From a virus, in the IMG/VR virus record IMGVR_UViG_3300020463_000129, positions 1 to 24,159 of that record: a stretch of 24,159 nt of DNA; one strand, given 5' to 3'. Shown piece by piece: positions 479 to 19,484 of this stretch (position 1 is the stretch's first letter; each line of letters opens with the position of its first letter). The notes beneath the pieces were generated by a model, which was not told where the DNA came from, made no database searches, and worked only from the letters and a program-made list of their open reading frames with translations. The position numbers and the translations under genes are program-made.

Positions 479-502
479 TTCTACAGGTTATAATAGTAGA
501 AA

Positions 503-518
503 AGGTGTAATATTAAAC
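503..518 (+). promoter_or_regulatory. AGGTGTAA motif / candidate -10 before tail operon
   Basis: AGGTGTAA occupies 503-510 and is followed by 8 nt before the ATG at 519. TAATAT at 508-513 would serve as a -10 box and ends 5 nt before the ATG. No good -35 is visible at the expected distance. The same motif and spacing recur before 14677 (plus) and before 16527 (minus). The site sits in the 40-bp gap between two divergent genes. Confidence 0.5.
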
Positions 519-2540
519 ATGGCGGCTGAAGGAAGAAATGAAGTAGCAAGAAGTTTGTTGGATTTACAGCCAACAGCAATTGTTGAGTTATATAGATTGC
601 GTCCAGATACTACCAATAGCCCAAATCTGTCTGTCTATTTCCACGGCGGTTCAATGTTTGGCAAAAATATTACTTGGCAGGGCGTTGAATATATACCAGT
701 CCCTATAGAATCCGAAGGTTTTGGGGTTTTTGGCGATGGCACTTTACCTCGACCTAAAATTAAAGTAAGTAATAATAACAAGTTGGTTACCTTTTTACTG
801 GGTAAATATAAAGATTTTAAAAATGCTGCTATATCTAGAACAAAAGTTTTTGTTAAACACTTGGACGATGTAAACTTCGACGGTCAAAACCCTTTCGGTC
901 TATCTAATCCTGAATCTGAAATCTCAACAGAGAAATATTTAATAGGCCAAAAAGTTCAAGAAAATAAAGCATTTGTTGAGTTTGAGCTTAATTTACCTTT
1001 AGATCTTGACAACTTTGACATAAATTATAGAACGGTAAATGCAAAATACTGTTATTGGACATATAGAGGTTTAGGTTGCCAATATGAAGCTAAACCTGTT
1101 GAACAAGAAGATGGAAGTGCCTTCGTTAACGTGCTTGGAGAAAGGGTAACGGTAGATGCTACCGAAGAAATGATAAGGACGGGTCAATTATTCTATGAAG
1201 CGGAGAAAACTTACAATGCTGGAGAACCTGTTTACTTAGAAAACTCAAGAATAATAGTTGGGAGAGAACAGGATAGTGAACCAATTTTTCATAAAACTTG
1301 GTATGTTTGCGTTAGTGGTAATTCTGGTCAGCACCCAGAGGACAACTCATCTTTCTGGCAAAAAGATGGATGCAGCAAAAAAATCGAAGCGTGTCAAAAG
1401 AGATTTACTAGTGATAGCTTAAAAAGAATATCTTTAGGTGATGAGGAAACGGGCTTTAATTACTTACATCTAGATGGGGAGGAGGGTGCAACTTTAGCTA
1501 CTTTACGTCCCGATGTAACAGGAGTATTCAATCAACCAGAGTGGACCGTGTCTCTTTGGATGCGTGGAGACAAACAATTTGAAGATAGTTCAGGCAATTT
1601 TACGCACCCTACAGTATTCGCTACTAAGGCTTTACCTAGAACAAATAAACTTTTTAATCCTGTAGACGAGGGTGAAGTTTCTACTTCAGGCTCATTTACA
1701 AATAGAGTTACAGCTAACCTACATTTTTCTTCTGCAATTCAGGGTCAAGAGGATCAAAAGGGTCTCTTCTTAGAGTTGTCGGCTCCTCAAGTAAAGAATG
1801 ATAGAAGCTATACAAAAAGAATACCCACAAAAATAGCATCATCAGAACATTTTCACTGTGTGATTCTTAGAGGTTTTTCCCGAGGTTCAAGAGGACCAAC
1901 AAGAGGCCATATTGAAATACTTGTTAATCCACACAAAAATCAATACGGAACATTTAGTTACTCAAGCAAAGTTGACATGAGATCAAATCGTTTTAATTTA
2001 GGTGTTGATTTCTTTTCTATATTTGGTGAAGCTACAGGGGTAAACGAAGATCCCGTCAATCAAATAAATAAAGAAAATTGTTTTGGTGGTGATATAGCTC
2101 AGGTTTGTGTTTGGGGCAGAAAACTTTCTAACGATGAAGTTACTTGGATTGGCGCTGCTAATAGTGTAGCTGATTCAGAGTATTACTTGACCGATAATGG
2201 TCTACAAAAACGTGTGGATCTTTATTGTGATTATGCACCTCTTTCATATGGGGAAACCACAGGATACTTGTCATCTTTAAGGACGGATTTAAAGGGGTGG
2301 TACGACATGACTACAGCTACTGTTAGCGGTAAATTTCTTAGCCTTGATGAGTCGGATGGAGATAACCACCTAACAGGATTTGGCGACACCAACCAATTTG
2401 AAACACGGAGGCTAGATTACACAGTAGGTAAGTTTGAACAGTTTATAGCTAACCAAAACGCGCTACAACCTTTACCCTTTGGTGGGTTCCCGGGGACAGA
2501 CGGATTTGATTACAAAGCTTTAGGATCACAAAATATATGA
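519..2540 (+). CDS. Tail tip protein L-like, with inserted lectin-like (LamG/ConA) domain
   Basis: Residues 1 to about 190 follow the lambda gpL pattern (minor tail protein L): LQPTAIVELYRL near the N-terminus, a tryptophan-glycine strand (ITWQGVEY), LPRPKIKVSN, and the YCYWTYRGLGC block. Cys178, Cys187, Cys285 and Cys292 match the arrangement of the four cysteines that bind an iron-sulfur cluster in lambda gpL. From about residue 310 to 560 there is a long extra region with laminin-G/concanavalin-like strands, including VSLWMRG and the typical closing strand IAQVCVWGRKLSNDEV, so the protein is about three times the length of lambda gpL. A further in-frame ATG at 453 lies inside the divergent minus-strand gene, so I chose 519. 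The stop overlaps the next start (ATGA). Role: tail-tip structural protein, probably with added carbohydrate binding. Confidence 0.88.
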   Translation: MAAEGRNEVARSLLDLQPTAIVELYRLRPDTTNSPNLSVYFHGGSMFGKNITWQGVEYIPVPIESEGFGVFGDGTLPRPKIKVSNNNKLVTFLLGKYKDFKNAAISRTKVFVKHLDDVNFDGQNPFGLSNPESEISTEKYLIGQKVQENKAFVEFELNLPLDLDNFDINYRTVNAKYCYWTYRGLGCQYEAKPVEQEDGSAFVNVLGERVTVDATEEMIRTGQLFYEAEKTYNAGEPVYLENSRIIVGREQDSEPIFHKTWYVCVSGNSGQHPEDNSSFWQKDGCSKKIEACQKRFTSDSLKRISLGDEETGFNYLHLDGEEGATLATLRPDVTGVFNQPEWTVSLWMRGDKQFEDSSGNFTHPTVFATKALPRTNKLFNPVDEGEVSTSGSFTNRVTANLHFSSAIQGQEDQKGLFLELSAPQVKNDRSYTKRIPTKIASSEHFHCVILRGFSRGSRGPTRGHIEILVNPHKNQYGTFSYSSKVDMRSNRFNLGVDFFSIFGEATGVNEDPVNQINKENCFGGDIAQVCVWGRKLSNDEVTWIGAANSVADSEYYLTDNGLQKRVDLYCDYAPLSYGETTGYLSSLRTDLKGWYDMTTATVSGKFLSLDESDGDNHLTGFGDTNQFETRRLDYTVGKFEQFIANQNALQPLPFGGFPGTDGFDYKALGSQNI

Positions 2541-2932
2541 ATTTAAAACAAAAACTACAAGAAATAGTTGATTATTCAGATAATAACCCGTTTGTAGAAA
2601 TTTGTGGGTTTTTAGGTTTTGATGAGAAAACAGAAAGTTATGTAGTACAACATTTGGAAAATATATCGGAAGACCCCAGAAACAACTTCATGCTAGACCC
2701 TTTGGAGTATCTGATCTTTAAAGATAAATTTGATATGCTCGCTATATACCATAGCCATATCAACGTGGATGAGCAGCCCTCAGAGTTTGATGTAAAAATG
2801 TGTAATAATTGCTGCATACCCTTTCTCATATACAGTTTAGAAACTAAAAAATTTAATCTTTATGAGCCACAAAATCTAGAAACAGATGTAAATATACATA
2901 ACAGGTTTAAGGAGGATTATGACAACTATTAG
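2537..2932 (+). CDS. Tail assembly peptidase K-like, JAMM domain only
   Basis: The 131-residue product carries a complete JAMM/MPN+ zinc peptidase signature: Glu21 in VEICGFLG, then His72-Ser-His74, Ser82 and Asp85 in HxHx7SxxD spacing. Lambda gpK has this domain joined to an NlpC/P60 domain. Here the second domain is absent, and no separate NlpC/P60 gene is present in the window. Start overlaps the stop of the gpL-like gene (ATGA) and the 3' end overlaps the gpI-like gene by 14 nt, so these genes are probably translationally coupled. The position between L and I is exactly that of lambda K. Likely role: tail-tip maturation or assembly. The catalytic residues look intact. Confidence 0.9.
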   Translation: MNLKQKLQEIVDYSDNNPFVEICGFLGFDEKTESYVVQHLENISEDPRNNFMLDPLEYLIFKDKFDMLAIYHSHINVDEQPSEFDVKMCNNCCIPFLIYSLETKKFNLYEPQNLETDVNIHNRFKEDYDNY

Positions 2933-3518
2933 ATTACATGGGATTTTAGCTCAAAAATATGGCAAAGTGTTCAAAATGGACATAGATAAGCCTAGAGACG
3001 TAATCAGGGCTATAGATGTTAATAGGGGAGGCTTCCGAAAGACTGTTATGGATTTACAGAAACAGGGTTTTACTTACGAAATTATTGTAAACAAGGAAAG
3101 ACTAAGTAAAAAGACTTTTTTAGACAAAAAAAATCCTAAAGAGATAGACTTTGTGCCTTTTATTGTAGGCGCTGCGGATTTCGGCATATCAATTATTCTT
3201 ATGTTGGTTAGTACGGCTATACAATATGCTCTTATGGACCCGGGTACTATTGATGGTGGTGAACAAACTGTGGGTGGAGACAGTAAATCTTTAATGTTTA
3301 GTAGTAGTCTAATTAATTTGACCGCTCAGGGTTCTCCATTACCAATAGGTTACGGAAGATTAAAAGTTGGATCTAGCGTAATTCAGTCATCAATGAAGTC
3401 TCTACCTCAAACTGTTAGGACTGTGGATGCAATGCAATCTGATACTTATACACCTCAAAACGAAGATGGTCTTACTTATCAACAATCAGATATAGAGATT
3501 TCTAATCCTAGCTTGTAA
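2919..3518 (+). CDS. Tail assembly protein I-like
   Basis: This 199-residue protein has the lambda gpI layout. The N-terminal part (MTTIRLHGILAQKYGKVF onward, residues 1-80) resembles the ubiquitin-like fold of gpI. A long Gly/Ala/Ile-rich hydrophobic stretch follows at about residues 81-106, and then a Ser/Gly-rich part containing LPIGYGRLKVGS. It has one of the few strong Shine-Dalgarno sequences in the window (AAGGAGGA, 4 nt before the ATG), placed inside the end of the preceding gene. Its position between K-like and J-like genes supports the call. In lambda, gpI is needed for tail-tip assembly but is not found in the finished virion. Whether that holds here is inference. Confidence 0.85.
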   Translation: MTTIRLHGILAQKYGKVFKMDIDKPRDVIRAIDVNRGGFRKTVMDLQKQGFTYEIIVNKERLSKKTFLDKKNPKEIDFVPFIVGAADFGISIILMLVSTAIQYALMDPGTIDGGEQTVGGDSKSLMFSSSLINLTAQGSPLPIGYGRLKVGSSVIQSSMKSLPQTVRTVDAMQSDTYTPQNEDGLTYQQSDIEISNPSL

Positions 3519-3521
3519 ATT

Positions 3522-6500
3522 ATGAATCATCTATCTAGAAAAAAGAGGTTGTATGGAGCGGGTAAAAAACCCAAGGTTAAACCTGCGGTCTTGTCCCCCC
3601 CAAAAATAGGTGATTTTCAGTTTGGATCATCATTTAGTTTTGTAGAGACACTCGATCTTATTTCAGATGGACCTATTGAAGGTTTGGTAGACTCAAAAGG
3701 TAATCTGTTAGAAACTAAAGATATTTCAAGAGGGGTTTATTTGGATGCGACCCCCGTTTCAATAGCTATTGATACTGAAGACTCTGAAAACCAAGATTCA
3801 GTAATAGATTTATTAAGAATAAACGTATCTGTTTCTAGTACTTTTGAAAATTTAAATATAGCAGATCAAGGTGGAAAGTCAGGTGGTAGTATACGTGATA
3901 TAACTCACGTTAATCAAGAGTATAGCATAGGTGCTGATAAGACAAATCAGCTCTTAACTTGGGAGAACCTTGTTGATGGTGTAGATCCTTTAATTGCTCT
4001 TATGGAGCGCGAGACTTTTACGTCACTAAGCGCTAGCAAAAACAACTCCAGTAAAAAATATTATAATTATGACTCTGATTCAGAATCTTATAATCTGATT
4101 AGGGATAAAGTAAAATATAGAGTTAGCCTTCTTTGGGCTAATGCTAGCAATTTATCAGCTAGCACAACAGAACTTATTTTAGGTTTTTACAAAAATTATG
4201 ATACACGTGATAATGTTGGACCTAGAAATGTTAACGGCAAAAGAAGAATAATTGACACAATTGGAGCATCCAAAATCGGGGGGAATGAGAGTAAGGGGAC
4301 AGAGACTTTTATTAATTCTTTAATAGATGCATATAATGTAACTTACGAAAACAACGTTTTTATGAGGTCACTCATAGAAACTAAAATGAACAAAGTTTTT
4401 GGTATAGGTTGGCAGGAACGCAGCGTGACCAGCTTGAGAGATCAATTTTATTATACTCGCGATGATGCTGGATATTTTATAACTTACTATCCCAAACGAG
4501 ATATTTTGAATGGTACGTCTGCCGTGACATTTCAAGATCCAACACAAGTTAGGTTTACATTTACTGATTCTAACGGCGAAGAGTCTCCTATTGTAAGAAA
4601 TTCTAGTTACATAGACTTATTGATTCCAATATGTAATGAAAATGGCGTTGTTCAAACTGGCTCAAATATTCTTGGAGCTATATTTTTACACATTCCTCAA
4701 TTCTCTTCATTCCAGACGTTAATTCTTACTGTTGCGGAGCAGGAGGCACAGCTTCTCCGACAATTTATAAATGAAGGCTTGAGTTATTCCGCAGCATTAA
4801 ACAGAGCGGGTAATAGAGGACCAATCCCATTTTTAAAAGAGGAGTCTCACGATATAGATAGAACCATATCTGAATTTAAAAAAATATCAATCCTCTCTCT
4901 AACTGAAAAGCCTAATAATTCCTTAACAAGCTCAAAATACAACTACAATAATGTTTTAATTGAATCAAGATTGGGTAACGAGAAGCAATCTCCATTTAAA
5001 TATTTTAATAAAATAAATATAGATAAATCTGTAGACAAAAATGTCTATGGCCCATTCAAAACTAATGGTCAAGTTCAGAGATTGAAGAAGAACGCCAGCT
5101 TCAATAAAGAGAATATTAATATGTTAGAGTCTGACTTCGATGGCCCCAATCTAACTTTATCTCAAGGCTTACCAATTAATGAAGGTAGTAATGATAATAT
5201 ACGGGGTCGTGGGTCTGAGCCATCAACTTCCTTCTCTTCTTGGAATAATAATAGTCGAGAATATGAGTTAGAGGAAGCAGCTTCTCCGATTACTTATGTG
5301 GTGCAAAACCCTAATGTTACTGAAGTTTTTGTTACTCTTAAGATAGATAGTCTTTTTGATACTATTGAAACGCCTTATATTCCGGAGCCAGAAGCTAAAG
5401 ATTTTAAAGCTGGAGATAAACTACCAGCGATAATGAACGTTCAAATTGAAGTCGGGAAAATGCTTTCTGACGGATCATTACAACCTACATCCTCAAGAAC
5501 TTATAGAATATCTGCTCTCATAGAAGGGCCGACTTTAATAGATATAGGCAACCCGATTAACGAAGGGACAGAAGAGCAGCTTCAACATATTAGAGACGTA
5601 ACAAATCTAGGGGAAGACGCTGATTTATCTACCCCATACTATTTGCCAAGAGTAAATAATTATTCAGAAAATAACGTATACTCTTCTCCAGAAAAAAGAT
5701 ATGTTAAAGTCAGCAAATTATCTACAGAAACTTTTTCAATATTAATATCTAAAGAATTAAGCTTTTTCAAGGTAACTGAGATTATACCTGTAAACTTAAC
5801 GTATCCTTTTTCAGCCATCATTGGCACAAAGATAGATTCTAAGAACTTTTCTGGAATGCCTCAAAGATCTTTTGATGCAAGATTGAAGCGTGTAAAAATA
5901 CCAATAAATTATTTCCCCACTGAAAATACAGGTCCAAAAAAAGATAAAAGATATTACGACCGCAAATCAGAATTTGATTCAGCTAGCGACATAAACAAAC
6001 AGATTTATATTGGTGACTGGGATGGTACTTTAAAAGAAGGTTGGACAGATAATCCAGCTTGGATTCTATATGACTTATTAGTAAATACTAGATATGGTCT
6101 AGGTCAACATATTGATTCTTCAGATATCAATAAGTGGGAGCTGTATAAAATAGGAAGATTTTGTGATGCTGTTGATGAAGAAGGATTCTTTGAGGGTGTT
6201 CCTGATGGAAGAGGGGGGCTAGAACCAAGATACTCTTGTAACATCGTATTTAACAGTGATGAGAAGGTTTTCGATTCAATACAGCTCATTTCTAAGCTGT
6301 TTAGGGGTCACACGTTTTTTAGAGCTTCAGAGGTTTCTTTTACTGACGATAGAGTCAAGCTTCCTATCGCATTATTTAATAATAATAATGTCAAAGATGG
6401 AGTGTTTAACTACTCTAACTTGAGAAGGGATCAACAATTCAATACTGTTGAAGTGTCTTATTTAGATAGGTTTGAAAACTTCACCCCAAAAGTCGAGGTT

Positions 6501-7988: not shown

Positions 7989-7989
7989 T

Positions 7990-10900
7990 ATGCCTATTAT
8001 TTTAAGAGAATTTGACACCACACAACCGAACATTGATTTTACAGACTTATCGACAACGATAACTGTAAGTGGTGTTAGGTTGTTAAAAGATGTTACTATA
8101 AATACATCCATCATCGACAACATAAGTGGTGAGGTAGATAGCGCATCCGACTTCTTAGAGAACCCTTTCACTAGTAAGTTAAATGTAGATATTCTTAATC
8201 AAGACGGTTCGGTAGCTTATCAAAATTTCTTACAGGATTACAAATCCAACAACTTCACATTCACTGAATATGATAACATTAATGTTTTCGGTGAATACGA
8301 AAAAGATTTTGGTGTTCAAATGAAAGTTGTAGGTAATGATGACTCAGAGCAAACAACGAAACTATTTCTGTATGGAAACCATCCGTATATTAGCGGTATT
8401 GATATTCAAGATGTTAGTGGAGCAAAGAGGTTTAGCGGTTCGATGGGGGTTGGATCTGGAATTTCGGCCATTGGTCAAACGGGTGCTATAACTGGCGTTA
8501 TAAGTTTTTTTAATGACCCTGAGTATATAGTTTTTGATAAACTAGAAGTATATAGTTCTAAAAGTTCCAGTGAGTTCGTTAATCAAATAAATCCTAATAT
8601 TGTTTTAACTAGACCCATATTAGAGTCAAGTTCTCAATTTGCATTTAACATCGACGAGAATTCTTTTGCTTTTTCTGATTCTTCAGAATTTTTCTTACAT
8701 TTTGTTACCTATGGCCAATTTGGTACGGGAGATGTCTGGACTATTGGACCCCACAACTTTGCAAATACCCCTCTGGGTAGTAACGAACTGGGCTTACAGA
8801 GTCTTCAGTCGGTCACAGATATAGGTAGTACTACATCTAATGAAATTTCCTTGCTTAGTAACCTCAATATGAGTAATGAAAGCTCTGAGATTAATTTTCT
8901 CGGTGGAGCTGCTAAAATTAGCGCTAGCAGTGCAGAATCATCTACCTCTACCGTAGCGGGTTTTCAAATAAAAGCTGATAAATATAGCTTCAACGTCGGA
9001 TCTGATGAAAACTCTAACGAAGTTAATTCTTTTGCATCTGTAGTTTTAGCTGGAACCCAAAATAAAATCTTTGGTGATTACGATGGTATTGTGGCAGGAA
9101 CTAATAATGTTATTTCTGGCGCTTCTGGGTCAGGTGATTTTGGTTTCATAGGTGCTGGTTCTGGTATAGATATCCTACATTCAAATTACGCTAGTAGTAT
9201 TGGTGGTGTTAATAATGATATAACTGGATCAGACTACAGTTTAATTGGTGGTGGTCAGAACAACTCTATAAAGAAATCGGATCATGCTTTAGTCGCTGGA
9301 GGCGTCACAAACGCTATTTTAGATTCTTATAGTTCAGCACTTGTTGGAGGTGGGTCTAATATTATTAGAAATCATTTTAATAATTTTATTGGTGGAGGAG
9401 GGGGCAATACAATAGATGCTCCAGCGTCCGTTATCGCTGGAGGTATTACTAATTTAGTTACAGGAGATGGTTATTCCTTTGTAGGAGGTGGAGAAGGAAA
9501 TGAAATCTATAGTATTTTTGGAGGTATACTAGGTGGTGAAAACAATATAGTCTCTGGATCAGACTCCGCTATTGTAGGTGGTTCTCAAAATAAATTATTC
9601 GGCACTCACTCTCTTATAGCAGGAGCGAAACGTTCTATTTCAAGCGGAGATTATTCTGTTGGTTTAGGAAGAAGAACCATGATTGCAGATGGTCATCATG
9701 GAGCTTTTGTGGCTGGCGATGGTATTAACAGAGATCATAATTCTACTGGGGCGCATACAGCGGTTTTAGATTTTACTGGAGGTGTTCACATTCCTAATGG
9801 AGGTTTGTTTATCAGTAGGAACATTACCGCTGAAGCCATTACAGGTTCCGCGCTCACCATTGATACTGATACACTTTTTGTTGATTCGTCTAACAATAGA
9901 GTTGGTATAGGAACAACTAGTCCATCCTCCATACTCCATATTGACGATGATGCTTCCACTGGAACGGGTCTTAAAGTGACTGGAGGAGGTTCTGGGGGGC
10001 CATTAGCCACATTTACCCGCGATGTTGGTAGCACAGGGACAATCTCTATAAACTCAGCCGCAGGTGACCCTCAAATAAGCCTCGCTTCATCATCGAATAC
10101 TTTTGCTCTAGGCACTAATGGTGCTAATTTTGAAATTTGCGATAATGACGCTGTAGGAACAAATACACGATTAATTATTGCTAGCGATGGTGATGTTGGT
10201 ATAGGGACAACAAGTCCATCAGCTAAATTAGATGTAATAAGCAATCACTCTCAATTAAGATTAGAAGATTCAGACGACAGCAAATTTGTATTATTCAGTT
10301 ACTCTGGAGGCAAGTTAGTAATAAGAAATAATTCAACTAGTACAACAACAAATCAATTCACATTAACAGAGGATGGAAAGTTTGGTATAGGAACAACTAG
10401 CCCGGGTAATAAGCTTACTGTTAGTGGTGCTGGCACAACAGCTTCGTTTGTGAGCAGTAATAGTAAAAGTATAATTAACTTATCTGACGATGGGGCGGAT
10501 GTAAACCTTATTTCAAATAGTGGTACTTTTCATATTGGTAGCACAAGTACTGATTTAGCTAAGTTTATGATTAACTTAGGTAATGGTAAAGTTGGTATAG
10601 GAACAACTAATCCAGCGGATCAACTACATGTGGTAGGCACTAGAATTAGGTTATCCTCTAACGCTGGAGGTTTTTATAAGTATACAGCGGGGGGTGGATT
10701 CAGATTCGCTCTCTATGATGATTCATCAAAAACACAACTTTTTGCAGATGGAAATGGCTCTACTCCACACATGACTTTTAATGCTGGTTTTGTTGGTATA
10801 GGGACAGAAAATCCAGCTTCTCTACTTCATTTAGCATCAACAGGCCCAGCGGTATTGACTATTGAAGCGGATACCGATAATGCAACTGAAACAGATAATG

Positions 10901-13107
10901 CTCGTATCGTCTTAAAACAAGATGGCGCAATAGTAGTCGGCAGAATGGGATATGAAAACAACACTAATGCATTAGAATTTATTAATGAATTTAATGATAG
11001 CTTATCTCTAGGAACAAATAATACAAAAAGATTAACTATTACTGGGGGTGGTGCTGTTGGTATAGGAACAACTAGTCCAGTTGGGAAATTATGCGTAGAG
11101 CAACTTGATAACAATGAAGATGCATTAGTCTTAAGAGGTGGTGGATCATCGAGCAGTGTTCAAGGCAATGTCAGCCTCTCTATGAGTCATTTTAGTAGCA
11201 CTAATCCAGCCGTGAGAATCACGGCAGAAGAACGTGGAACCGCAGATTTTAGAGCAAATTTATTATTTTTATTGAGAGACGTAAACAGCAATGTTGCACC
11301 AACAGAAAAAATGCGTATTACGTCTGATGGCAGAGTTGGCATAGCAACAACGAGTCCAAGTGCTAAATTAGATGTTACTGTTACAAGCGGCAACGCTTGG
11401 ATGAATTTAATAAATGCTACTGAAACTGCATTTAGGCTAACTACTTATAATAACGGCACAGGTAACGGGAGTAACGCTTATGCTTTTAAACATGGATTAT
11501 ATTATAACACCACAGAGAACGCCGCTGTAACCTTCTACAGAGGGGGTGGTACTACAGGAGGGTTTTTAACTTTCACTACACATACTGGTAATGAAAGAAT
11601 GCGTATTAATTCTTCAGGTAATGTCGGCGTAGGAACAACTGATCCGACTCAAAGGTTAAACGTATCAGGACCAAACACTAGCCCGAATTTACAATCTTCA
11701 ACAGTTAGTGGAGCTTCACTGCATTTATCAAATTCTGATAATGCTTATGGCATGTATTTCGCGAGCCTATCAAGCGGAAAAGGTATAATACAACAAAGGA
11801 GACAAACAAGCACTACTACATACGATCTTCTCTTACAGCCATACGGGGGTAATGTTGGTATAGGAACAACTAGTGCAGCTTATCCTTTTGCTTTAGAGAA
11901 TAGTGGGACAGGATTAATAGCAAGGATATATAATACCAATGCTGATGGTGATGGAGTGCTTATTAGAGCTGGATCAACCTCATCTGCAACTAGAGCGTTA
12001 CAAGTAGCTTCTACTAACGATACTAAAATTTTAACAGTTAATTCTAATGGCAGAGTTGGAATAACAACAACAAGTCCAGACTATCTCTTAGATATAGGAG
12101 GTGATACAGGTAGTGCTGATAACACAATCAGAATGGTTCAAGCTGATGGCGGTACTGCTATAAGAATAGGCGCTGGAGGAGGCGCTAATGATGTAAACCT
12201 TTTGAGGGTCGATGGAAACTCTAGCGTCAACAAGGGAGAGAGTAACTCTTCTAATTTCGGATTCTCTCTAAGATACAAAGGTTCAGGTGTAGGAGCTAAT
12301 AATTCTCTAGCATTTTTTGCTGATAATTCAACTGCTGGTTCTCAAATCGAAGCTCTTACTATTTTAAATGATGGTAAAGTGGGTATAGGGTCAACTTCAC
12401 CATCAGAAAAATTACATGTTGTTGGTAAAGTTTTAGCGGATAACCTTTTTACACCACAATGGGTTACTCCATTAATGCTGGGAGCATGTAACACAAACAC
12501 ATCTGGTAGCGGTTCAGTTACCAGTGAGGGTAAAGGGGTATCACTTGCAGCTGGGGCGGGAGCTACTGATTCAGCAGCGATAAGACTAGATCGTTACTTT
12601 GCTGCGGCGCGAGGCTCTGGACAGACTACAAGATGTGATTTTTGGAATACTATAGTTGGTATTGGCTTTCAACGAACTCTAGTTGATGATACTGAATTTT
12701 TTATTGAGATAGGAGTAGCAGGTTCACCAGTTGGTCCACCATCAGATTCAGATAAGGGTATATTTTTCTGTTTAAAAAGAGTAAGCGGTGCGTATACTTA
12801 TGACATTCGACACAACAGAGGTACGGCAGAAACTAACACTACAGCAGTAGATCAATCTACATCATTCAATCTTAGTTTTAAGTTTAGTGTAGAAATAAGA
12901 ACTTTAAAAACTGGCACACTTCAATTGTACATTAGTAACGATGGAGACGAGCCGACACTAGTACAGGAATTTACAGGTCTAACGTTCGGTCAAAACGGAA
13001 CAACTAGCCAACATGAAGTTTGGGCTGGATACAGAAGTATAGGTCGTACCTCTGGCAACCATTTTGTTGGTGCAAATAGCGGCTATGTTGGTTACTGGAA
13101 AAATTAA
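7990..13107 (+). CDS. Giant tail fibre: beta-roll plus GIGTTSP repeats
   Basis: This 1705-residue protein is a modular fibre. Residues 1 to about 350 form an N-terminal part, presumably for attachment to the J-like tip. Residues about 350-590 are a Gly-rich ladder of 14-17-residue repeats of the type IxGGGxNNxI, as in YadA-like or hexapeptide-style beta-rolls. Residues about 600-1480 contain eleven repeats of the VGIGTTSPxxKLxV type, common in phage fibres and probably beta-prisms in a trimer. The last ~230 residues form a separate beta-rich domain with no repeats and end in YVGYWKN. The usual partner of such repeats, a C-terminal S74 self-cleaving chaperone, is not evident. Role: receptor binding. 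The start lies immediately after the J-like stop and has no Shine-Dalgarno. Confidence 0.9.
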   Translation: MPIILREFDTTQPNIDFTDLSTTITVSGVRLLKDVTINTSIIDNISGEVDSASDFLENPFTSKLNVDILNQDGSVAYQNFLQDYKSNNFTFTEYDNINVFGEYEKDFGVQMKVVGNDDSEQTTKLFLYGNHPYISGIDIQDVSGAKRFSGSMGVGSGISAIGQTGAITGVISFFNDPEYIVFDKLEVYSSKSSSEFVNQINPNIVLTRPILESSSQFAFNIDENSFAFSDSSEFFLHFVTYGQFGTGDVWTIGPHNFANTPLGSNELGLQSLQSVTDIGSTTSNEISLLSNLNMSNESSEINFLGGAAKISASSAESSTSTVAGFQIKADKYSFNVGSDENSNEVNSFASVVLAGTQNKIFGDYDGIVAGTNNVISGASGSGDFGFIGAGSGIDILHSNYASSIGGVNNDITGSDYSLIGGGQNNSIKKSDHALVAGGVTNAILDSYSSALVGGGSNIIRNHFNNFIGGGGGNTIDAPASVIAGGITNLVTGDGYSFVGGGEGNEIYSIFGGILGGENNIVSGSDSAIVGGSQNKLFGTHSLIAGAKRSISSGDYSVGLGRRTMIADGHHGAFVAGDGINRDHNSTGAHTAVLDFTGGVHIPNGGLFISRNITAEAITGSALTIDTDTLFVDSSNNRVGIGTTSPSSILHIDDDASTGTGLKVTGGGSGGPLATFTRDVGSTGTISINSAAGDPQISLASSSNTFALGTNGANFEICDNDAVGTNTRLIIASDGDVGIGTTSPSAKLDVISNHSQLRLEDSDDSKFVLFSYSGGKLVIRNNSTSTTTNQFTLTEDGKFGIGTTSPGNKLTVSGAGTTASFVSSNSKSIINLSDDGADVNLISNSGTFHIGSTSTDLAKFMINLGNGKVGIGTTNPADQLHVVGTRIRLSSNAGGFYKYTAGGGFRFALYDDSSKTQLFADGNGSTPHMTFNAGFVGIGTENPASLLHLASTGPAVLTIEADTDNATETDNARIVLKQDGAIVVGRMGYENNTNALEFINEFNDSLSLGTNNTKRLTITGGGAVGIGTTSPVGKLCVEQLDNNEDALVLRGGGSSSSVQGNVSLSMSHFSSTNPAVRITAEERGTADFRANLLFLLRDVNSNVAPTEKMRITSDGRVGIATTSPSAKLDVTVTSGNAWMNLINATETAFRLTTYNNGTGNGSNAYAFKHGLYYNTTENAAVTFYRGGGTTGGFLTFTTHTGNERMRINSSGNVGVGTTDPTQRLNVSGPNTSPNLQSSTVSGASLHLSNSDNAYGMYFASLSSGKGIIQQRRQTSTTTYDLLLQPYGGNVGIGTTSAAYPFALENSGTGLIARIYNTNADGDGVLIRAGSTSSATRALQVASTNDTKILTVNSNGRVGITTTSPDYLLDIGGDTGSADNTIRMVQADGGTAIRIGAGGGANDVNLLRVDGNSSVNKGESNSSNFGFSLRYKGSGVGANNSLAFFADNSTAGSQIEALTILNDGKVGIGSTSPSEKLHVVGKVLADNLFTPQWVTPLMLGACNTNTSGSGSVTSEGKGVSLAAGAGATDSAAIRLDRYFAAARGSGQTTRCDFWNTIVGIGFQRTLVDDTEFFIEIGVAGSPVGPPSDSDKGIFFCLKRVSGAYTYDIRHNRGTAETNTTAVDQSTSFNLSFKFSVEIRTLKTGTLQLYISNDGDEPTLVQEFTGLTFGQNGTTSQHEVWAGYRSIGRTSGNHFVGANSGYVGYWKN
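9045..9740 (+). repeat. Coding repeats for Gly-rich beta-roll of the fibre
   Basis: About fourteen degenerate repeats of 42-50 bp encode the pattern (V/I)(A/G)GGxxNxI. The DNA copies have diverged, so this is a protein-level repeat. Typical copies are LIGGGQNNSI, LVGGGSNII and VGGGEGNEI. Confidence 0.75.
9901..12402 (+). repeat. Eleven GIGTTSP-type coding repeats in the fibre gene
   Basis: Cores begin near 9901, 10195, 10381, 10591, 10792, 11056, 11335, 11623, 11854, 12055 and 12379. Several are nearly identical in DNA (GTTGGTATAGGAACAACTAG at 9901, 11056 and 11854), whereas the segments between them are unrelated. Spacing varies from 186 to 324 bp. These short, conserved DNA islands could act as sites for recombination that changes the number of modules. 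Confidence 0.85.
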
Positions 13108-13131
13108 AATATTAACAAATAATAAAAAAAA

Positions 13132-13506: not shown

Positions 13507-13515
13507 AAAAAATCG

Positions 13516-13543
13516 TTGAAAATGTTGTTGATATTTATATTAT
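13516..13543 (+). promoter_or_regulatory. Candidate sigma70 promoter
   Basis: TTGAAA at 13516-13521 and TATTAT at 13538-13543 are separated by 16 bp and lie 9 nt before the ATG at 13553. The background is very AT-rich, so this is a moderate call. Confidence 0.45.
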
Positions 13544-13552
13544 TAAATAACA

Positions 13553-13729
13553 ATGAACGAAATTAAACTCTCTCTACAGGAAAACGAAACCACCGTACTT
13601 CTACAACTTATTGATATTGCAATCAAGGCTCAAGGTCTTCAGGTCGCTGAAGCTGGGTCTTTTCTAGCGAATAAAATTACTGAAGAGGTAAAAACTCAAA
13701 GCGCTCCATCTGAAGAAGCGGAAGAGTAA
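13553..13729 (+). CDS. Small conserved phage protein, 58 aa
   Basis: The frame encodes 58 residues beginning MNEIKLSLQENETTVLLQLI and ending in an acidic tail (SAPSEEAEE). The central helix contains IDIAIKAQGLQVAEAG. Small proteins with this kind of core occur in marine phages, in my memory without an assigned function. The length, the acidic tail and the amphipathic helix suggest a small regulatory or binding protein, but nothing in the sequence shows a specific role. A candidate promoter lies just upstream and a promoter-containing inverted repeat just downstream. Confidence 0.7.
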   Translation: MNEIKLSLQENETTVLLQLIDIAIKAQGLQVAEAGSFLANKITEEVKTQSAPSEEAEE

Positions 13730-13759
13730 AAAAAGCCTAATAATTTTTTAAAAAAGACA

Positions 13760-13788
13760 TTGACAGCCCTGCCATAGATCGTTATGGT
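13760..13788 (+). promoter_or_regulatory. Sigma70-type promoter for 13807 gene
   Basis: TTGACA (13760-13765) is a perfect -35, followed by a 17-bp spacer and TATGGT (13783-13788). The ATG is 18 nt beyond the -10. The promoter lies within an inverted repeat (13763-13796), which could serve as an operator. Confidence 0.7.
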
Positions 13789-13796
13789 TGGGCTGT
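13763..13796. repeat. Inverted repeat overlapping promoter, candidate operator
   Basis: ACAGCCC (13763-13769) is perfectly inverted as GGGCTGT (13790-13796). Nested inside, CCATA (13772-13776) is inverted as TATGG (13783-13787). The -35 overlaps the left arm and the -10 overlaps the inner right arm. There is no T-run after it, so it does not look like a terminator. Confidence 0.65.
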
Positions 13797-13806
13797 TACG
13801 TTAAAC

Positions 13807-14109
13807 ATGAGTCAAGAAATCATAAATATTTCAGTCAATAAATCCGACATATTTAATTATGTTGTGGGTAAAGCTTCTTATGATCCAATTGAGAAGTGTA
13901 TCGATCCAACTCTATACGAAACATATTCTGATTTCATCTTGCGTCATGATGGAGACCAGCAGGAATACATCTACCAAGATAGAGATTATGAACTGTTCTA
14001 CAAGGAGATGAGTAAACTAAAAAAACTATCCAAAGGCATGAGTGGAGGCGAAATCATTCGTATTTGTGAAGAATTAGAAGAGATGGCCCCAAAAACAATC
14101 AGCTTATAA
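13807..14109 (+). CDS. Unrecognised 100-aa protein
   Basis: I do not recognise this 100-residue protein. It begins MSQEIINISVNKSDIFNYVV and is mixed-charge and probably mostly helical. The second half is Lys/Glu-rich (KEMSKLKKLSKGMSGGEIIR), followed by an acidic helix and a short C-terminus. No membrane segment or metal-binding motif is visible. It has its own clear sigma70-type promoter and is separated by only 3 nt from the MazG-like gene, so the two are likely co-transcribed. A role linked to nucleotide metabolism would be a guess from position only. Confidence 0.75.
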   Translation: MSQEIINISVNKSDIFNYVVGKASYDPIEKCIDPTLYETYSDFILRHDGDQQEYIYQDRDYELFYKEMSKLKKLSKGMSGGEIIRICEELEEMAPKTISL

Positions 14110-14112
14110 GAC

Positions 14113-14502
14113 ATGCTACAAACACAAGAATTTATGGAATACGAAGAAATATGTGAATTAGTGATTGAGTGGGGGGAGAGTAAAGGAATTTTTGATTCAT
14201 CTACTCCACTTCGCCAACTAGACAAGACGCAAGAAGAACTTGACGAAACAAGAGAAGCCTTAAAAAAGCTAAATGATTTTAATTATCAGCGTGATTTGAT
14301 GGAAGGTCTTGGAATGCCTACTTCAAATAAAGAGGATATTCTTGCAGAAGTTAAAGATGGCATTGGTGATATGTTAGTCACCATTGTTTTGCTCTCTGAG
14401 ATGGTCGGATTCGACAGCACAGACTGTTTAAATACAGCTTATGATGTAATCAAGCAGCGCACTGGTAAGATGGTAGATGGGCAATTTGTTAAAGATAATT
14501 AA
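14113..14502 (+). CDS. MazG-like NTP pyrophosphohydrolase
   Basis: The 129-residue product is an all-helical MazG-type protein. It carries EELDE (residues 41-45), and about 34 residues later EVKDGIGDMLV, supplying Glu79, Asp82 and Asp86 in the E-E-x-x-E ... E-x-x-D pattern that binds magnesium. The C-terminal helix ends QRTGKMVDGQFVKDN, which is typical of phage MazG-like proteins. The family hydrolyses nucleoside triphosphates to monophosphates plus pyrophosphate. In phages it is thought to adjust nucleotide pools or stress alarmones. It fits functionally with ThyX encoded downstream. There is no Shine-Dalgarno; Met8 is an alternative start. Confidence 0.88.
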   Translation: MLQTQEFMEYEEICELVIEWGESKGIFDSSTPLRQLDKTQEELDETREALKKLNDFNYQRDLMEGLGMPTSNKEDILAEVKDGIGDMLVTIVLLSEMVGFDSTDCLNTAYDVIKQRTGKMVDGQFVKDN

Positions 14503-14514
14503 AAAACATTTAAA

Positions 14515-14646
14515 ATGAGAAAAGCAGTAATTTTTGAGAAAAAAAAGAAGATTAAGAGGAAAGGTATTCATGCTAAAAGCAAGACATCCACCACTAAAAC
14601 ATCCACAAATTACAAAAAACCTTATAGGGGCCAAGGAAAAATTTGA
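14515..14646 (+). CDS. Very basic 43-aa conserved small protein
   Basis: A 43-codon frame encodes a strongly basic protein with a run of Lys near residues 9-12. Its C-terminal half combines KGIHAKSKTS, a Thr/Ser/Lys-rich segment and YKKPYRGQGKI. I recall small basic proteins with this KGxHAKxKxS ... YRGQG pattern in marine phages and some marine bacteria, which supports a real gene. The charge suggests nucleic-acid binding, but no function is known to me. It starts 12 nt after the MazG-like stop and ends 30 nt before the next ATG. The promoter of the next gene begins within its stop codon region. Confidence 0.75.
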   Translation: MRKAVIFEKKKKIKRKGIHAKSKTSTTKTSTNYKKPYRGQGKI

Positions 14647-14671
14647 TTTTTGGCGTTTTTAGGTGTAATAT
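14643..14671 (+). promoter_or_regulatory. Promoter with GTGTAA motif, predicts leaderless mRNA
   Basis: TTGATT (14643-14648), a 17-bp spacer and TAATAT (14666-14671) lie upstream of the ATG at 14677, with only 5 nt between -10 and ATG. AGGTGTAA spans 14661-14668. The spacer contains TTTGGCGTTTTT, similar to TTTGGCGCTTTT in the promoter before 16908. Confidence 0.65.
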
Positions 14672-14676
14672 AATAC

Positions 14677-14871
14677 ATGGACGCTATTATTTCTCTTGTT
14701 GAGGACGAAGCTTGGTTTAGTTGGGTTACTGCTATTATTGCAGCAGCATCAATCATTACCGCCGCCTCCCCAACCCCAAAAAAAGGTTCTTGGTTATCTA
14801 AGATCTACTCCGTTATTGATTTTCTGGCTGTAAATGTCGGAAAAGCTAAGGACAAATCCGAAGATAAGTAA
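14677..14871 (+). CDS. Small one-helix membrane protein (possible holin)
   Basis: The 64-residue product has an acidic N-terminus (MDAIISLVEDEAWF), one Ala/Ile-rich hydrophobic helix at about residues 15-30 (WVTAIIAAASIITAAS), and a basic amphipathic C-terminal half (from TPKKGSWLSKIYSVID to KAKDKSEDK). Similar small proteins occur in marine phages. One helix with a charged tail would be compatible with a holin or pinholin, but the amidase lies about 8 kb downstream, so this is only a suggestion. It has its own promoter and is followed directly by a strong terminator, so it may be expressed alone or as the last gene of the operon. Confidence 0.75.
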   Translation: MDAIISLVEDEAWFSWVTAIIAAASIITAASPTPKKGSWLSKIYSVIDFLAVNVGKAKDKSEDK

Positions 14872-14900
14872 TACTTTTTAGTATATTATAAACCTTAAAC

Positions 14901-14936
14901 TCCCTCACTCTGAATATTCGGGGTGAGGGACTTTTT
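14901..14936 (+). terminator. Intrinsic terminator
   Basis: TCCCTCAC (14901-14908) pairs with GTGAGGGA (14923-14930). The stem can extend inward through wobble pairs to GAATATTC at the tip, and CTTTTT follows at once (14931-14936). It closes the plus-strand unit ending with the gene at 14677. Confidence 0.9.
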
Positions 14937-14971
14937 GTATAAAAATCTTTTCACCGAGGGGAAATATTCTC

Positions 14972-15001
14972 TTGACAATCCGAGGGTAAATAGTGTAATA
15001 C
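14972..15001 (+). promoter_or_regulatory. Sigma70-type promoter with GTGTAA motif
   Basis: A perfect TTGACA (14972-14977) lies 18 bp before TAATAC (14996-15001). TAGTGTAA occupies 14991-14998, leaving 9 nt to the ATG at 15008. It restarts transcription directly after the terminator. Confidence 0.7.
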
Positions 15002-15007
15002 ATACAC

Positions 15008-15259
15008 ATGAAGATTACAGGTAAGCAGGAAGTCGAAATTGAGATTTCCCAAGGGCAAAGACACTTGATCGCTCTTGATTACATTTCAGAGGTATTTGAT
15101 TGGGACTCAGACTACTTTATCGAAGGCGGTTGGGTGATTAAGCGTGATATAGCTCACACCTCGCACTCGTTTGAGATTAAGAATAAAGTGAGAGAGGCGA
15201 CCAAACAAGATCAATGCTTGTATGACATCTTTAAAACTTTGAAAAGGCAGGTTTTTTAA
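15008..15259 (+). CDS. Conserved small phage protein, 83 aa
   Basis: This 83-residue protein starts MKITGKQEVEIEISQGQRHL and contains ALDYISEVFDW, an acidic middle and AHTSHSFEIKNKVREATKQD. I recall small proteins of this type from cyanophages, always without a function. It is probably an alpha/beta protein without membrane segments. It has its own promoter and no same-strand partner. Its last codons overlap, tail to tail by 4 bp, the end of the minus-strand gene 15256-15498, so no terminator separates the two convergent transcripts. Confidence 0.8.
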   Translation: MKITGKQEVEIEISQGQRHLIALDYISEVFDWDSDYFIEGGWVIKRDIAHTSHSFEIKNKVREATKQDQCLYDIFKTLKRQVF

Positions 15260-15498
15260 CCGTTAAAAACGGAACCGTTCCCAGTGTAACGCAAGCCAGC
15301 ATCAAAGGGGGAAATATATAGAGACTCGTCTTGACCTAAGTCTCTGATCTTCTTATTGAATTCTCTGGTGATGTGGTCATTCAGTTCGCTATCAGGATAG
15401 TCATTGTAAAACCCAGTGACCTGCGCTCTGTAGCCAGTCCAAGTTCCTGATACAAAAGAGAAGTCTGAATGTATTTCTGATTGAGTTAATCGTGGCAT
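15256..15498 (-). CDS. Unrecognised 80-aa protein
   Basis: I do not recognise the 80-residue product. It starts MPRLTQSEIHSDFSFVSGTW and contains YRAQVTGFYNDYPDSELNDH and a Gly/Tyr-rich end (AGLRYTGNGSVFNG). No catalytic or membrane signature is visible. It is last in a tight minus-strand cassette and lies 12 nt downstream of the gene 15511-15987, so it should be co-transcribed. The ATG has no clear Shine-Dalgarno. Its 3' end overlaps the convergent plus-strand gene by 4 bp. Confidence 0.72.
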   Translation of the reverse strand: MPRLTQSEIHSDFSFVSGTWTGYRAQVTGFYNDYPDSELNDHITREFNKKIRDLGQDESLYISPFDAGLRYTGNGSVFNG

Positions 15499-15510
15499 AT
15501 CTTATTTTGT

Positions 15511-15987
15511 CTACAGTTTTTTCTTTTTGAGCTTCTCAAACGCTGGTTCATACGCTTTTATAGCTGCATTTAAGTTCTTTTTCTTTTCTGGGTCTGAAGT
15601 TCTTTTGAGTGCTACTTTTGCCCTTTGTATCATGACCAACATCGCTTGAACTTTATGGGCGTGTTTTCTATTAGAATTTTTAATTATTTTAATAGATTCC
15701 GTAGCAGTTTTAGCATCTTTGAATCCTAGCCCTTTTATTGTACGTTTTGGATCTTCATCTGTGTAAAGATCAGAATGTTCTGATTTAGGTCTTTTGGTTC
15801 CATCTTTTCTTTTCTCTGGCACTCTATCTTCATCGCCTTCTGATTTATATGCCCCACCTCTCTTTTGACGTTTACAATATTGCTTCTCGCTAAATCCTTT
15901 TGGATTATCGCAGTCTATAGAACGTTTTCTTTTAGCACTCCACTTGCTAGCTCTGATTTGTTCAGAAAAATCTAATTCTATATCCAT
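15511..15987 (-). CDS. Basic Cys-containing phage protein, 158 aa
   Basis: The 158-residue product is very rich in Lys and Arg. The first third contains SAKRKRSIDCDNPKGFSEKQ followed by YCKRQKRGG, with Cys26 and Cys38 as a possible metal pair. Next come a charged linker and a helical part built around GLGFKDAKTATESI and QAMLVMIQRAKVAL. It ends in a poly-Lys tail. I recall proteins with this KGFSxKQYC...YKSEGDE layout in marine phages and other large DNA viruses, but not a function. The basic character suggests nucleic-acid or virion association. It forms a cassette with the next upstream gene (18 nt gap), which also has a Cys-containing N-terminal region. Confidence 0.75.
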   Translation of the reverse strand: MDIELDFSEQIRASKWSAKRKRSIDCDNPKGFSEKQYCKRQKRGGAYKSEGDEDRVPEKRKDGTKRPKSEHSDLYTDEDPKRTIKGLGFKDAKTATESIKIIKNSNRKHAHKVQAMLVMIQRAKVALKRTSDPEKKKNLNAAIKAYEPAFEKLKKKKL

Positions 15988-16005
15988 TACAAAATTTTGA
16001 TGCGT

Positions 16006-16527
16006 TTATTCTCCTTTAGCCCTTTTAATTTGGTCTGGGGTAGGCGCACCTTTATCGCCTTTCTTCCTCATTTTTTCACCAGAGCCACTCTTGATTCGAT
16101 CTCTCTTCTTTTTGATGTTTTCCCACAAGCTGCTATCAGACTTCTCCTTCTCCTTCTCTTTTAAGACCTCGTCATGGCGCTTCATGAACGTTTTGTGATC
16201 TGGCCCAGCCATATATAAAGTCTTACCATCTTTTGTTTTGTGAGGGTGGATACCTTTAAGACCTAACTTCTTAGCATCCTTCAGAGCCTCTTCTTTTGTT
16301 TCAAAATAGTGCTGCATTACACTAGGCGCTGCGCTAGAGAAAAACAAAATCTTATCTTCGTCCCCAAGAACTACGGAAGCTTTACTTTCAGCTTCTTGGA
16401 ATTGAGAAGAGCAAACAGCAATCCTTTGCTTGATATCTTTGAACTCGTCCTTGGCTGCAATATCAACCATACAGCGGCTCATAAATTTAGATCTTTTTTC
16501 TCCGTTTTTGGGCGTTGGTAAAGGCAT
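16006..16527 (-). CDS. Phage protein with RCM...QRIAVC N-terminal motif, 173 aa
   Basis: The N-terminal ~45 residues read MPLPTPKNGEKRSKFMSRCM then, after an acidic stretch, KQRIAVCSSQF. This form of motif (Pro-rich start, FxxRC, about 20 residues, QRxAVC) appears at the N-terminus of various phage proteins, including some head-morphogenesis proteins. The middle (residues about 60-115) contains QHYFETKEEALKDAKKLGLK and a predicted small alpha/beta unit. The C-terminus is a long Lys/Glu coil with KSGSGEKMRKKGDKGAPTP. The function is unknown to me; virion or scaffold association is inference. The start is preceded by AGGTGTAA at the same 8-nt spacing seen at 519 and 14677. Confidence 0.78.
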   Translation of the reverse strand: MPLPTPKNGEKRSKFMSRCMVDIAAKDEFKDIKQRIAVCSSQFQEAESKASVVLGDEDKILFFSSAAPSVMQHYFETKEEALKDAKKLGLKGIHPHKTKDGKTLYMAGPDHKTFMKRHDEVLKEKEKEKSDSSLWENIKKKRDRIKSGSGEKMRKKGDKGAPTPDQIKRAKGE

Positions 16528-16535
16528 ACTAATTG

Positions 16536-16543
16536 TTACACCT
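16536..16543 (-). promoter_or_regulatory. AGGTGTAA motif before 16527
   Basis: On the minus strand AGGTGTAA ends 8 nt before the ATG at 16527. The embedded TAACAA would end 5 nt before the ATG. It sits in the 24-bp gap after the metallopeptidase gene, giving the last three cassette genes a possible promoter of their own. Confidence 0.45.
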
Positions 16544-16551
16544 AAAATGTC

Positions 16552-16851
16552 TTATTTTTTCACTTTTTTTAAGTCAGCATTTTCAAGAACCCAAGGAATT
16601 ACAAGGTTCTCAACACACCTTACATAAGCTTCTTCATCATTTGCTTCCATGAAGGCTAGACCCGTCATCTCGAAAATCATGTGAGTTACTTCATGAACTA
16701 AGGTCCACCAGTGCTGCTCTGGATCTGCTAGGCATTTTTTATTCAATTTAATTACCTTATCATCCATCAAACATTCTCCCCAATCCTCCATTTCCTCATA
16801 AATTATTTTAATCTTTTTACAAAGAACGTTTACGGAAGAAATCCTCTTCAT
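16552..16851 (-). CDS. HExxH zinc metallopeptidase-like protein (ImmA/IrrE- or SprT-like)
   Basis: The 99-residue product contains WWTLVHEVTHMIFEMTGL, with His53-Glu54-x-x-His57 as zinc ligands and catalytic Glu, and a downstream acidic helix (NDEEAYVRCVENL) whose Glu73 or Glu74 may be the third ligand. This minimal layout is seen in small phage metallopeptidase-like proteins related to ImmA/IrrE. ImmA-type proteases cleave repressors, but no repressor or helix-turn-helix gene is nearby, so the substrate is unknown. It opens the minus-strand cassette and is divergent from 16908, with AAGTGTAA 8 nt before the start. Confidence 0.82.
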   Translation of the reverse strand: MKRISSVNVLCKKIKIIYEEMEDWGECLMDDKVIKLNKKCLADPEQHWWTLVHEVTHMIFEMTGLAFMEANDEEAYVRCVENLVIPWVLENADLKKVKK

Positions 16852-16859
16852 GCTTATAG

Positions 16860-16867
16860 TTACACTT
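16860..16867 (-). promoter_or_regulatory. AAGTGTAA motif before 16851
   Basis: AAGTGTAA on the minus strand ends 8 nt before the ATG at 16851, and the contained TAACTA would end 5 nt before it. No convincing -35 is visible. It lies a few bases from the divergent TTGACA at 16873. Confidence 0.45.
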
Positions 16868-16872
16868 AATTC

Positions 16873-16900
16873 TTGACATTTTGGCGCTTTTAATTAAAAT
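16873..16900 (+). promoter_or_regulatory. Sigma70-type promoter, divergent from minus cassette
   Basis: TTGACA (16873-16878), a 16-bp spacer and TAAAAT (16895-16900) lie 7 nt upstream of the ATG at 16908. The spacer contains TTTGGCGCTTTT, shared with the promoter at 14643-14671. Confidence 0.65.
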
Positions 16901-16907
16901 AAAAAGA

Positions 16908-17132: not shown

Positions 17133-17146
17133 CTATCCGATATACT
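17119..17146 (+). promoter_or_regulatory. Sigma70-type promoter for 17156 gene
   Basis: TTGACG (17119-17124), a 16-bp spacer and TATACT (17141-17146) precede the ATG at 17156 by 9 nt. GGAG lies 2 nt before the ATG, so the predicted leader is very short. Confidence 0.65.
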
Positions 17147-17155
17147 CGCGGAGTT

Positions 17156-18527: not shown

Positions 18528-18536
18528 TTTAAAAAC

Positions 18537-19154: not shown

Positions 19155-19157
19155 ATT

Positions 19158-19391: not shown

Positions 19392-19400
19392 AGATTAAAA

Positions 19401-19478: not shown

Positions 19479-19484
19479 AATAAA

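What the first reader, a model, noticed from the sequence alone, without database searches (positions are those of the whole stretch)
503..16867. Recurrent (A/T)(A/G)GTGTAA-N8/9-ATG start motif on both strands
AGGTGTAA occurs 8 nt before the ATG of genes at 519, 14677 (plus) and 16527 (minus). AAGTGTAA occurs 8 nt before the ATG at 16851 (minus), and TAGTGTAA 9 nt before 15008. In the four N8 cases the contained TAAnnn (-10-like) ends 5 nt before the ATG. This fixed spacing on both strands and in unrelated genes argues for a shared phage-specific control element: a promoter with TSS at the start codon, or a regulator site. AGGTG is too far away to act as a Shine-Dalgarno.
Basis: partly seen in the sequence, partly recalled or inferred. 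Interest (0 to 1): 0.72.

Follow-up and report, generated by a model that had tools for sequence, protein, structure and literature searches.

The report
Leaderless late promoter of marine phages
A short DNA signal, GTGTAA, sits 8 to 9 letters before the start codon of many virion and lysis genes in a group of uncultured marine phages, and it looks like a late promoter placed so that the messenger RNA begins at the start codon itself, with no ribosome-binding leader.

Summary
All five GTGTAA-N8/9-ATG sites exist, and only 2 of 1000 shuffles of the window's upstream regions give any hexamer as frequent at fixed spacing.
In 202 related IMG/VR contigs GTGTAA peaks at N8/N9/N10 before ATG in 21/13/7 gene families, against about 1 per position elsewhere. 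De novo EM finds the same motif. It favours operon-first genes and in three families abuts an intrinsic terminator.
The same phages carry a second start-proximal class: TTGACA-N16/17-TATAAT-N5-7-ATG. This gives an independent yardstick: promoters here sit where transcription would start at or next to the AUG. Seven known phages show neither peak.
GTGTAA precedes virion and lysis genes, TATAAT precedes DNA-metabolism genes. Larger relatives encode a divergent sigma factor whose operon begins with a TATAAT-class leaderless promoter.
Best reading: a single-element late promoter giving leaderless mRNA, plausibly read by the phage sigma, comparable to phiEco32 gp36 promoters. The sigma link is inferred, no TSS is mapped, and the host is unknown.

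The parts
505..510 (+). GTGTAA element, N8 before ATG 519 (tail tip protein L gene, first gene of the 519-13107 tail operon)
   Evidence: conserved in relatives, e.g. GTGTAATATTAAACATG
14663..14668 (+). GTGTAA element, N8 before ATG 14677 (64-aa gene, PHROG 9685 of unknown function)
14993..14998 (+). GTGTAA element, N9 before ATG 15008 (83-aa gene); part of a hybrid promoter with the TTGACA at 14972-14977, 16 nt upstream of TGTAAT 14994-14999
   Evidence: GTGTAA in 20/20 orthologs, TTGACA in 17/20
14972..14977 (+). TTGACA (-35 box) of the 15008 promoter
16536..16541 (-). GTGTAA element, N8 before ATG 16527 (173-aa gene on the minus strand)
16860..16865 (-). GTGTAA element, N8 before ATG 16851 (99-aa gene, weak Peptidase_M78 match, on the minus strand)
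16873..16900 (+). Class 1 promoter TTGACA(16873-16878)-N16-TAAAAT(16895-16900)-N7-ATG 16908, back-to-back with the 16860 minus-strand element
   Evidence: same class in 46 families with a -35
14900..14940 (+). Probable intrinsic terminator (CCCTCACTCTGAATATTCGGGGTGAGGG-ACTTTTTGT) between the 14677 gene and the 15008 promoter
   Evidence: read directly; not scored with a terminator tool
15761..15766 (+). GTGTAA decoy: chance match inside an antisense gene, NOT part of the system
   Evidence: 2-codon ORF

Best explanation
GTGTA(A/T)-N8/9-ATG is the core of a late-class phage promoter. It is a single -10-like element without a general -35 box, placed so that transcription starts at, or within about 2 nt of, the A of the ATG and gives a leaderless mRNA. 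The same phages place ordinary sigma70-type promoters (TTGACA-N16/17-TATAAT-N5-7-ATG) the same way before DNA-metabolism genes and before the operon that encodes the phage's own divergent, ECF-like sigma factor. Proposed cascade: host sigma70 reads the TATAAT class early and makes the phage sigma; RNA polymerase carrying the phage sigma then reads the GTGTAA class before virion and lysis genes; ribosomes load on the 5' AUG without a Shine-Dalgarno. Shown by sequence statistics: motif, spacing, two classes, functional split, sigma gene and the promoter of its operon. Inferred: that the TSS is at the AUG, that translation is leaderless, and that the phage sigma (rather than a host factor) reads GTGTAA.
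For: Spacing peak in 21/13/7 families at N8/9/10, about 1 elsewhere; controls GTATAA and AATGTG lack that peak. De novo EM motif. Pattern in 17 records: 66 matches against 3 for the reversed control. Operon-first bias: 18.6% of divergent and 8.8% of gap>=60 starts against 2.7% of close internal genes, p 8e-18 by sequence and 5e-4 by family. Terminator T-run ending at the motif in 17 of 56 gap>=60 motif genes against 13 of 510 others, but only 3 families. TATAAT-like N5-7-ATG genes have TTGACA at spacer 16 or 17 in 17 and 16 families, 0-2 at nearly all other spacings. Two-box promoters: 46 of 65 lying within 60 nt of a start have the -10 end 5-9 nt before ATG; controls show no comparable peak. 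Start triplets at the predicted TSS that open an ORF: ATG 170, TTG 10 (GTGTA class); ATG 79, GTG 7, TTG 0 (TATAAT class). Functional split: 0 of 7 annotated GTGTA families are DNA metabolism against 8 of 8 in the other class (Fisher about 1.6e-4, my calculation). Sigma factor in G001, G003 and G017; model with regions 2 and 4; class 1 leaderless promoter before the gene upstream of sigma in most of 33 members. Shine-Dalgarno near shuffled level at operon-first starts.
Against: No TSS is mapped. The sigma model contains a region 4 fold, which predicts a -35 element, yet no shared -35 was found for the GTGTA class. The window fragment itself holds no sigma gene. No sigma-promoter binding evidence exists; the sigma link rests on presence in related contigs. 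Neither MAG bin tested as a possible host shows the leaderless architecture, and the host is unknown. Forty close internal genes (11 families) also carry the motif. Functional annotation covers only a minority of the families.
Confidence: 0.8

Rival explanations
1. It is a promoter, but read by a host factor: sigma70 tolerating TGTAAT, an alternative host sigma, or sigma70 with a phage activator, rather than by the phage-encoded sigma. (This rival shares the promoter and leaderless parts of the best explanation and disputes only the reader of the element.)
For: TGTAAT matches TATAAT at 5 of 6 positions. In the 15008 family TTGACA stands exactly 16 nt upstream. No bipartite consensus was found although the sigma model has region 4.
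Against: The conserved part is GTGTA with G at the position where sigma70 wants A, and the last T only about 60%. No -35 in nearly all families. Functional split from the TATAAT class.
Confidence: 0.35
2. It is a translation-initiation signal in the 5' end of the mRNA (a non-Shine-Dalgarno ribosome or S1 site), independent of transcription start.
For: Fixed distance to ATG. Shine-Dalgarno sequences are scarce in these phages.
Against: Concentrated at operon-first genes rather than internal genes. Terminators end at the motif in three families. Same start-proximal placement as clear TTGACA/TATAAT promoters. GTGTAA does not match the anti-SD; only the occasional AGGTG does.
Confidence: 0.07
3. 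It is an operator for a phage regulator overlapping start sites.
For: One site (14993) is partly palindromic, GTGTA-ATACA-TACAC (read).
Against: Most other sites have no clear dyad. Some promoters would have to lie inside a terminator hairpin. Single-element phage promoters of this look exist.
Confidence: 0.08
4. Chance or compositional artefact.
For: Small number of sites in the window; AT-rich genome.
Confidence: 0.005

Closest known systems
phiEco32 gp36 sigma promoters (middle/late)
   Same: Single conserved element (tAATGTAtA, sharing TGTA), no -35, TSS 6-8 bp downstream, before middle and late genes, read by host core with a phage sigma (PMC8948821).
   Different: phiEco32 starts have Shine-Dalgarno in 81% of called genes and no GTGTAA-N8/9 peak. 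Here the element abuts the start codon. The sigma proteins show no significant similarity, and the sigma here has a region 4 fold whereas gp36 is reported to lack region 4 homology.
T4-type late promoters (TATAAATA, gp55)
   Same: -10-only late promoter element of about 8 bp read with a phage sigma (own knowledge).
   Different: Different sequence. The 50-kb T4 segment tested has no start-proximal peak and uses Shine-Dalgarno in 56% of genes.
Sigma70 leaderless genes of Actinobacteria and Deinococcus-Thermus (TANNNT about 12 nt before the start; Zheng et al. 2011, PMC3160421)
   Same: Class 1 promoters here have exactly this geometry.
   Different: Here in phages, low GC, with strong -35 boxes, and beside a second non-TATAAT class.
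Salmonella phage 7-11 late promoters (GTAAtg-N16-aCTA)
   Same: Late class read by a phage sigma that has region 4.
   Different: Bipartite; no second element was found here.

Membership tests
Leaderless sigma70 promoters (TANNNT near the start codon) | -10 box about 12 nt before the start codon | tested here: met
   TATAAT peak at N5/6/7 in 13/22/7 families
Leaderless sigma70 promoters (TANNNT near the start codon) | -35 box at 16-18 nt from the -10 | tested here: met
   TTGACA at spacer 16/17/18 in 17/16/4 families; applies to the TATAAT class and the 15008 hybrid, not to the other GTGTAA sites
Leaderless sigma70 promoters (TANNNT near the start codon) | Mapped TSS at the AUG | not testable with these tools
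   no RNA data
phiEco32-type single-element phage-sigma promoters | One conserved element without -35 | tested here: met
phiEco32-type single-element phage-sigma promoters | Consensus tAATGTAtA | tested here: not met
   GTGTA(A/T) with G before TGTA in 95%; it works like one but is not filed as a member
phiEco32-type single-element phage-sigma promoters | Phage encodes a sigma that reads the element | tested here: inconclusive
   sigma gene present in relatives; recognition not testable
ECF-like sigma factors (phage protein, G001/G003 family) | Sigma70 region 2 | tested here: met
   Pfam PF04542 above cut-off; residues 1-85 superpose on ECF region 2 at 2-3 A
ECF-like sigma factors (phage protein, G001/G003 family) | Sigma70 region 4 | tested here: met
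   residues 146-224 superpose on sigma region 4 (2h27 2.9 A, 6onu 2.0 A); sequence match only sub-threshold (PF08281)
T4-type late promoter | TATAAATA element | tested here: not met

The most novel reading that the evidence does not exclude
A widespread group of marine phages runs its detectable transcription programme on leaderless mRNAs. Two promoter classes (host sigma70 TATAAT for early genes, phage-sigma GTGTAA for late genes) are both placed so that RNA synthesis begins at the AUG, with a phage sigma that is itself expressed from a leaderless early operon.
Probability: 0.45. Interest if true: 0.78.

Novelty: new variant of a known kind. Interest (0 to 1): 0.62.

Why it matters
Leaderless mRNAs are known in phages mostly as single cases, lambda being the first found. 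Here the rule seems to hold for most recognisable promoters of a phage group found in many marine metagenomes, and for two promoter classes. If true, it gives a way to read early and late genes from sequence, a testable phage-sigma/promoter pair, a host clue (a host whose ribosomes accept leaderless mRNA well), and a natural system for studying leaderless initiation. It would also improve start-codon prediction in such genomes.

Tried and rejected
Host identification: the single genome-contig scan gave three MAG contigs carrying the sigma (Flavobacteriaceae bin, Halobacteriovorax bin, an unnamed bin). Halobacteriovorax bacterial sequence has SD 0.51 and GC 0.36 against 0.17 and 0.42 on the phage contig, and neither it nor the Flavobacteriaceae bin shows leaderless peaks; in the unnamed bin the motif appears on two contigs only, L387 and L395. 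I treat these as misbinned phage contigs. A single-subunit phage RNA polymerase (PF00940) gave no hit, but its control rang nowhere, so absence is not shown. A shared -35 for the GTGTAA class: none above shuffled level. A Shine-Dalgarno reading of AGGTG: rejected, since AGG is not conserved. A dyad operator: only one site shows a clear one. No close DNA relative exists among 50,697 phage records and no protein match of the sigma there. Whole-file download of the genome was not available. Paper searches gave no description of this motif.
Full report
OBSERVATION. A sixth pattern match at 15761 is antisense inside another gene and opens a 2-codon ORF, so it is chance. Over the window's gene starts, GTGTAA at N8/9 is expected 0.022 times and seen 5 times. 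When any hexamer at any spacing may win, only 2 of 1000 dinucleotide shuffles reach 5.

WHAT THE WINDOW IS. A 24,159-base IMG/VR fragment of a siphovirus-like phage: lambda-type tail genes L, a second minor tail protein, a tail assembly protein and the central fibre J at 519-7988, then a small-gene region with MazG, a pyrimidine-dimer glycosylase, ThyX and an amidase endolysin. It has no DNA match among 50,697 phage records but many relatives in viral metagenome contigs.

ENRICHMENT IN RELATIVES. In near relatives, deduplicated GTGTAA sites are followed by ATG at N8 42 times and N9 39 times, against a few at other spacings; GTATAA and AATGTG lack the N8/9 peak. In 17 records GTGTAA-N8/9-ATG has 66 matches against 3 for the reversed pattern. 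I called genes with a simple coding model and clustered 2639 deduplicated starts into 669 families. GTGTAA occurs at N8, N9 and N10 in 21, 13 and 7 families and in about 1 at other spacings. EM from random seeds finds W-GTGTA(A/T)TATAA with G 95, T 94, G 99, T 99, A 97, A 83 percent. Contigs that share only a distant homologue of the 17156 gene show no clear peak (set g17far).

PROMOTER RATHER THAN RIBOSOME SITE. The motif precedes 18.6% of divergently oriented starts and 8.8% of starts after a gap of 60 or more, but 2.7% of closely packed internal genes (p 8e-18 by sequence, 5e-4 by family). In three families an intrinsic terminator ends with its T-run directly at GTGTAA, so the gene's promoter, unless there is readthrough, must lie within about 17 nt of the ATG. 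This result is strong per sequence but rests on three families.

A SECOND CLASS THAT CALIBRATES THE GEOMETRY. TATAAT also peaks before ATG, at N5, N6 and N7 in 13, 22 and 7 families. Those TATAAT-like genes carry TTGACA with at most one mismatch at spacer 16 in 17 families and spacer 17 in 16 families, against 0-2 at nearly all other spacings, while ACAGTT shows nothing at those spacings. Of 65 two-box promoters lying within 60 nt of a start in 18 contigs, 46 have the -10 end 5-9 nt before the ATG; scrambled-box controls have no such peak. Six nt from -10 to +1 is the ordinary sigma70 distance (established knowledge; Zheng 2011 reads TANNNT about 12 nt before the start as leaderless). Hence sigma70-type promoters in these phages are placed for leaderless mRNA. 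GTGTAA(T)-N7/8-ATG, read as TGTAAT, has an almost equal geometry. The 15008 promoter is a hybrid with TTGACA 16 nt upstream of TGTAAT; GTGTAA is kept in 20 of 20 orthologs and TTGACA in 17. Start triplets that open ORFs at the predicted TSS are ATG 170 and TTG 10 for the GTGTA class, and ATG 79, GTG 7, TTG 0 for the TATAAT class. This fits the known preference of leaderless initiation for ATG/GTG (PMC4633059). Phages phiEco32, lambda, P-SSM2, S-H1, HTVC010P, HMO-2011 and T4 show neither peak, and six of them have clearly more Shine-Dalgarno.

TWO TEMPORAL CLASSES. Annotated GTGTA families are tail L, tape measure, a tail-fibre-assembly-like protein, a virion structural protein, endolysin, a hol-like protein and PhoH. 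Annotated TATAAT families are DNA ligase, HNH endonuclease, clamp loader, another endonuclease, endonuclease VII, DNA polymerase, a nucleotide-sugar epimerase (filed by PHROGs under DNA metabolism) and pyrimidine-dimer glycosylase. No GTGTA family is in the DNA category. Most families have no annotation, so 'late' and 'early' are inferred from function.

A CANDIDATE READER. G001, G003 and G017 encode a sigma70 region 2 protein above the Pfam cut-off. Relatives of the G001 protein are in at least 223 IMG/VR stretches, with no match in cultured phage records. Its model (mean pLDDT 71) has a region 2 domain and a region 4 domain that superpose on solved sigma factors at 2-3 A, and a low-confidence insert with four invariant cysteines. 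Z values are near 8 and the domains are small helical folds, so the sequence hit to PF04542 carries much of the weight. The gene just before the sigma is preceded by TTGAxx-N17-TAAAAT-N5-ATG or a close variant in most of 33 members, which suggests host sigma70 makes the phage sigma. The best analogue is phiEco32 gp36, whose promoters are a single tAATGTAtA element with TSS 6-8 bp downstream (PMC8948821). Against this, the sigma here has a region 4 fold yet the GTGTA class has no detectable -35. I put the phage-sigma link near 0.5 to 0.6, the promoter reading near 0.9 and the leaderless geometry near 0.8.

LIMITS. No TSS is mapped. The host is unknown: MAG bins containing related contigs look like misbinning. 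Family counts depend on a home-made gene caller (longest ATG start) and single-linkage clustering. The window itself holds no sigma gene. Paper searches covered only open-licence PMC text, so novelty is provisional.

Noticed in passing
window 13760-13806: A long imperfect dyad (ACAGCCC...CCATA...TATGG...GGGCTGT) overlaps a TTGACA-N17-TATGGT promoter-like pair just before the 13807 gene; it may be an operator or hairpin.
   Followed up: no
window 13553-22604: This region is shared at 49-97% protein identity with contigs such as G001 (118 kb), G002 and G003 that have no detectable match to the window's L, K/I or J tail genes, so it behaves like an exchangeable module.
   Followed up: partly
L262:10064-10735: Phage sigma factor with an insert carrying four invariant cysteines (CxxC...C...C), possibly a zinc site, in a large IMG/VR family without cultured relatives.
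   Followed up: partly
window 485-500: A TTATAATA stretch upstream of the 505 element is conserved in many tail L relatives (e.g. L017, L021, L026) between the divergent 478(-) and 519(+) genes; it may be a second or divergent promoter.
   Followed up: no
window 16851-16908: Back-to-back promoters within 56 bp: GTGTAA class on the minus strand and TTGACA/TAAAAT class on the plus strand.
   Followed up: partly
window 15511-15987(-): A 158-aa gene without any family match whose only found relative among the compared contigs is 91% identical in G016, suggesting recent transfer.
   Followed up: no
L344, L343, L342: Phage contigs with this sigma family sit in MAGs named Halobacteriovorax, an unnamed bin and Flavobacteriaceae; probable binning contamination.
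   Followed up: partly
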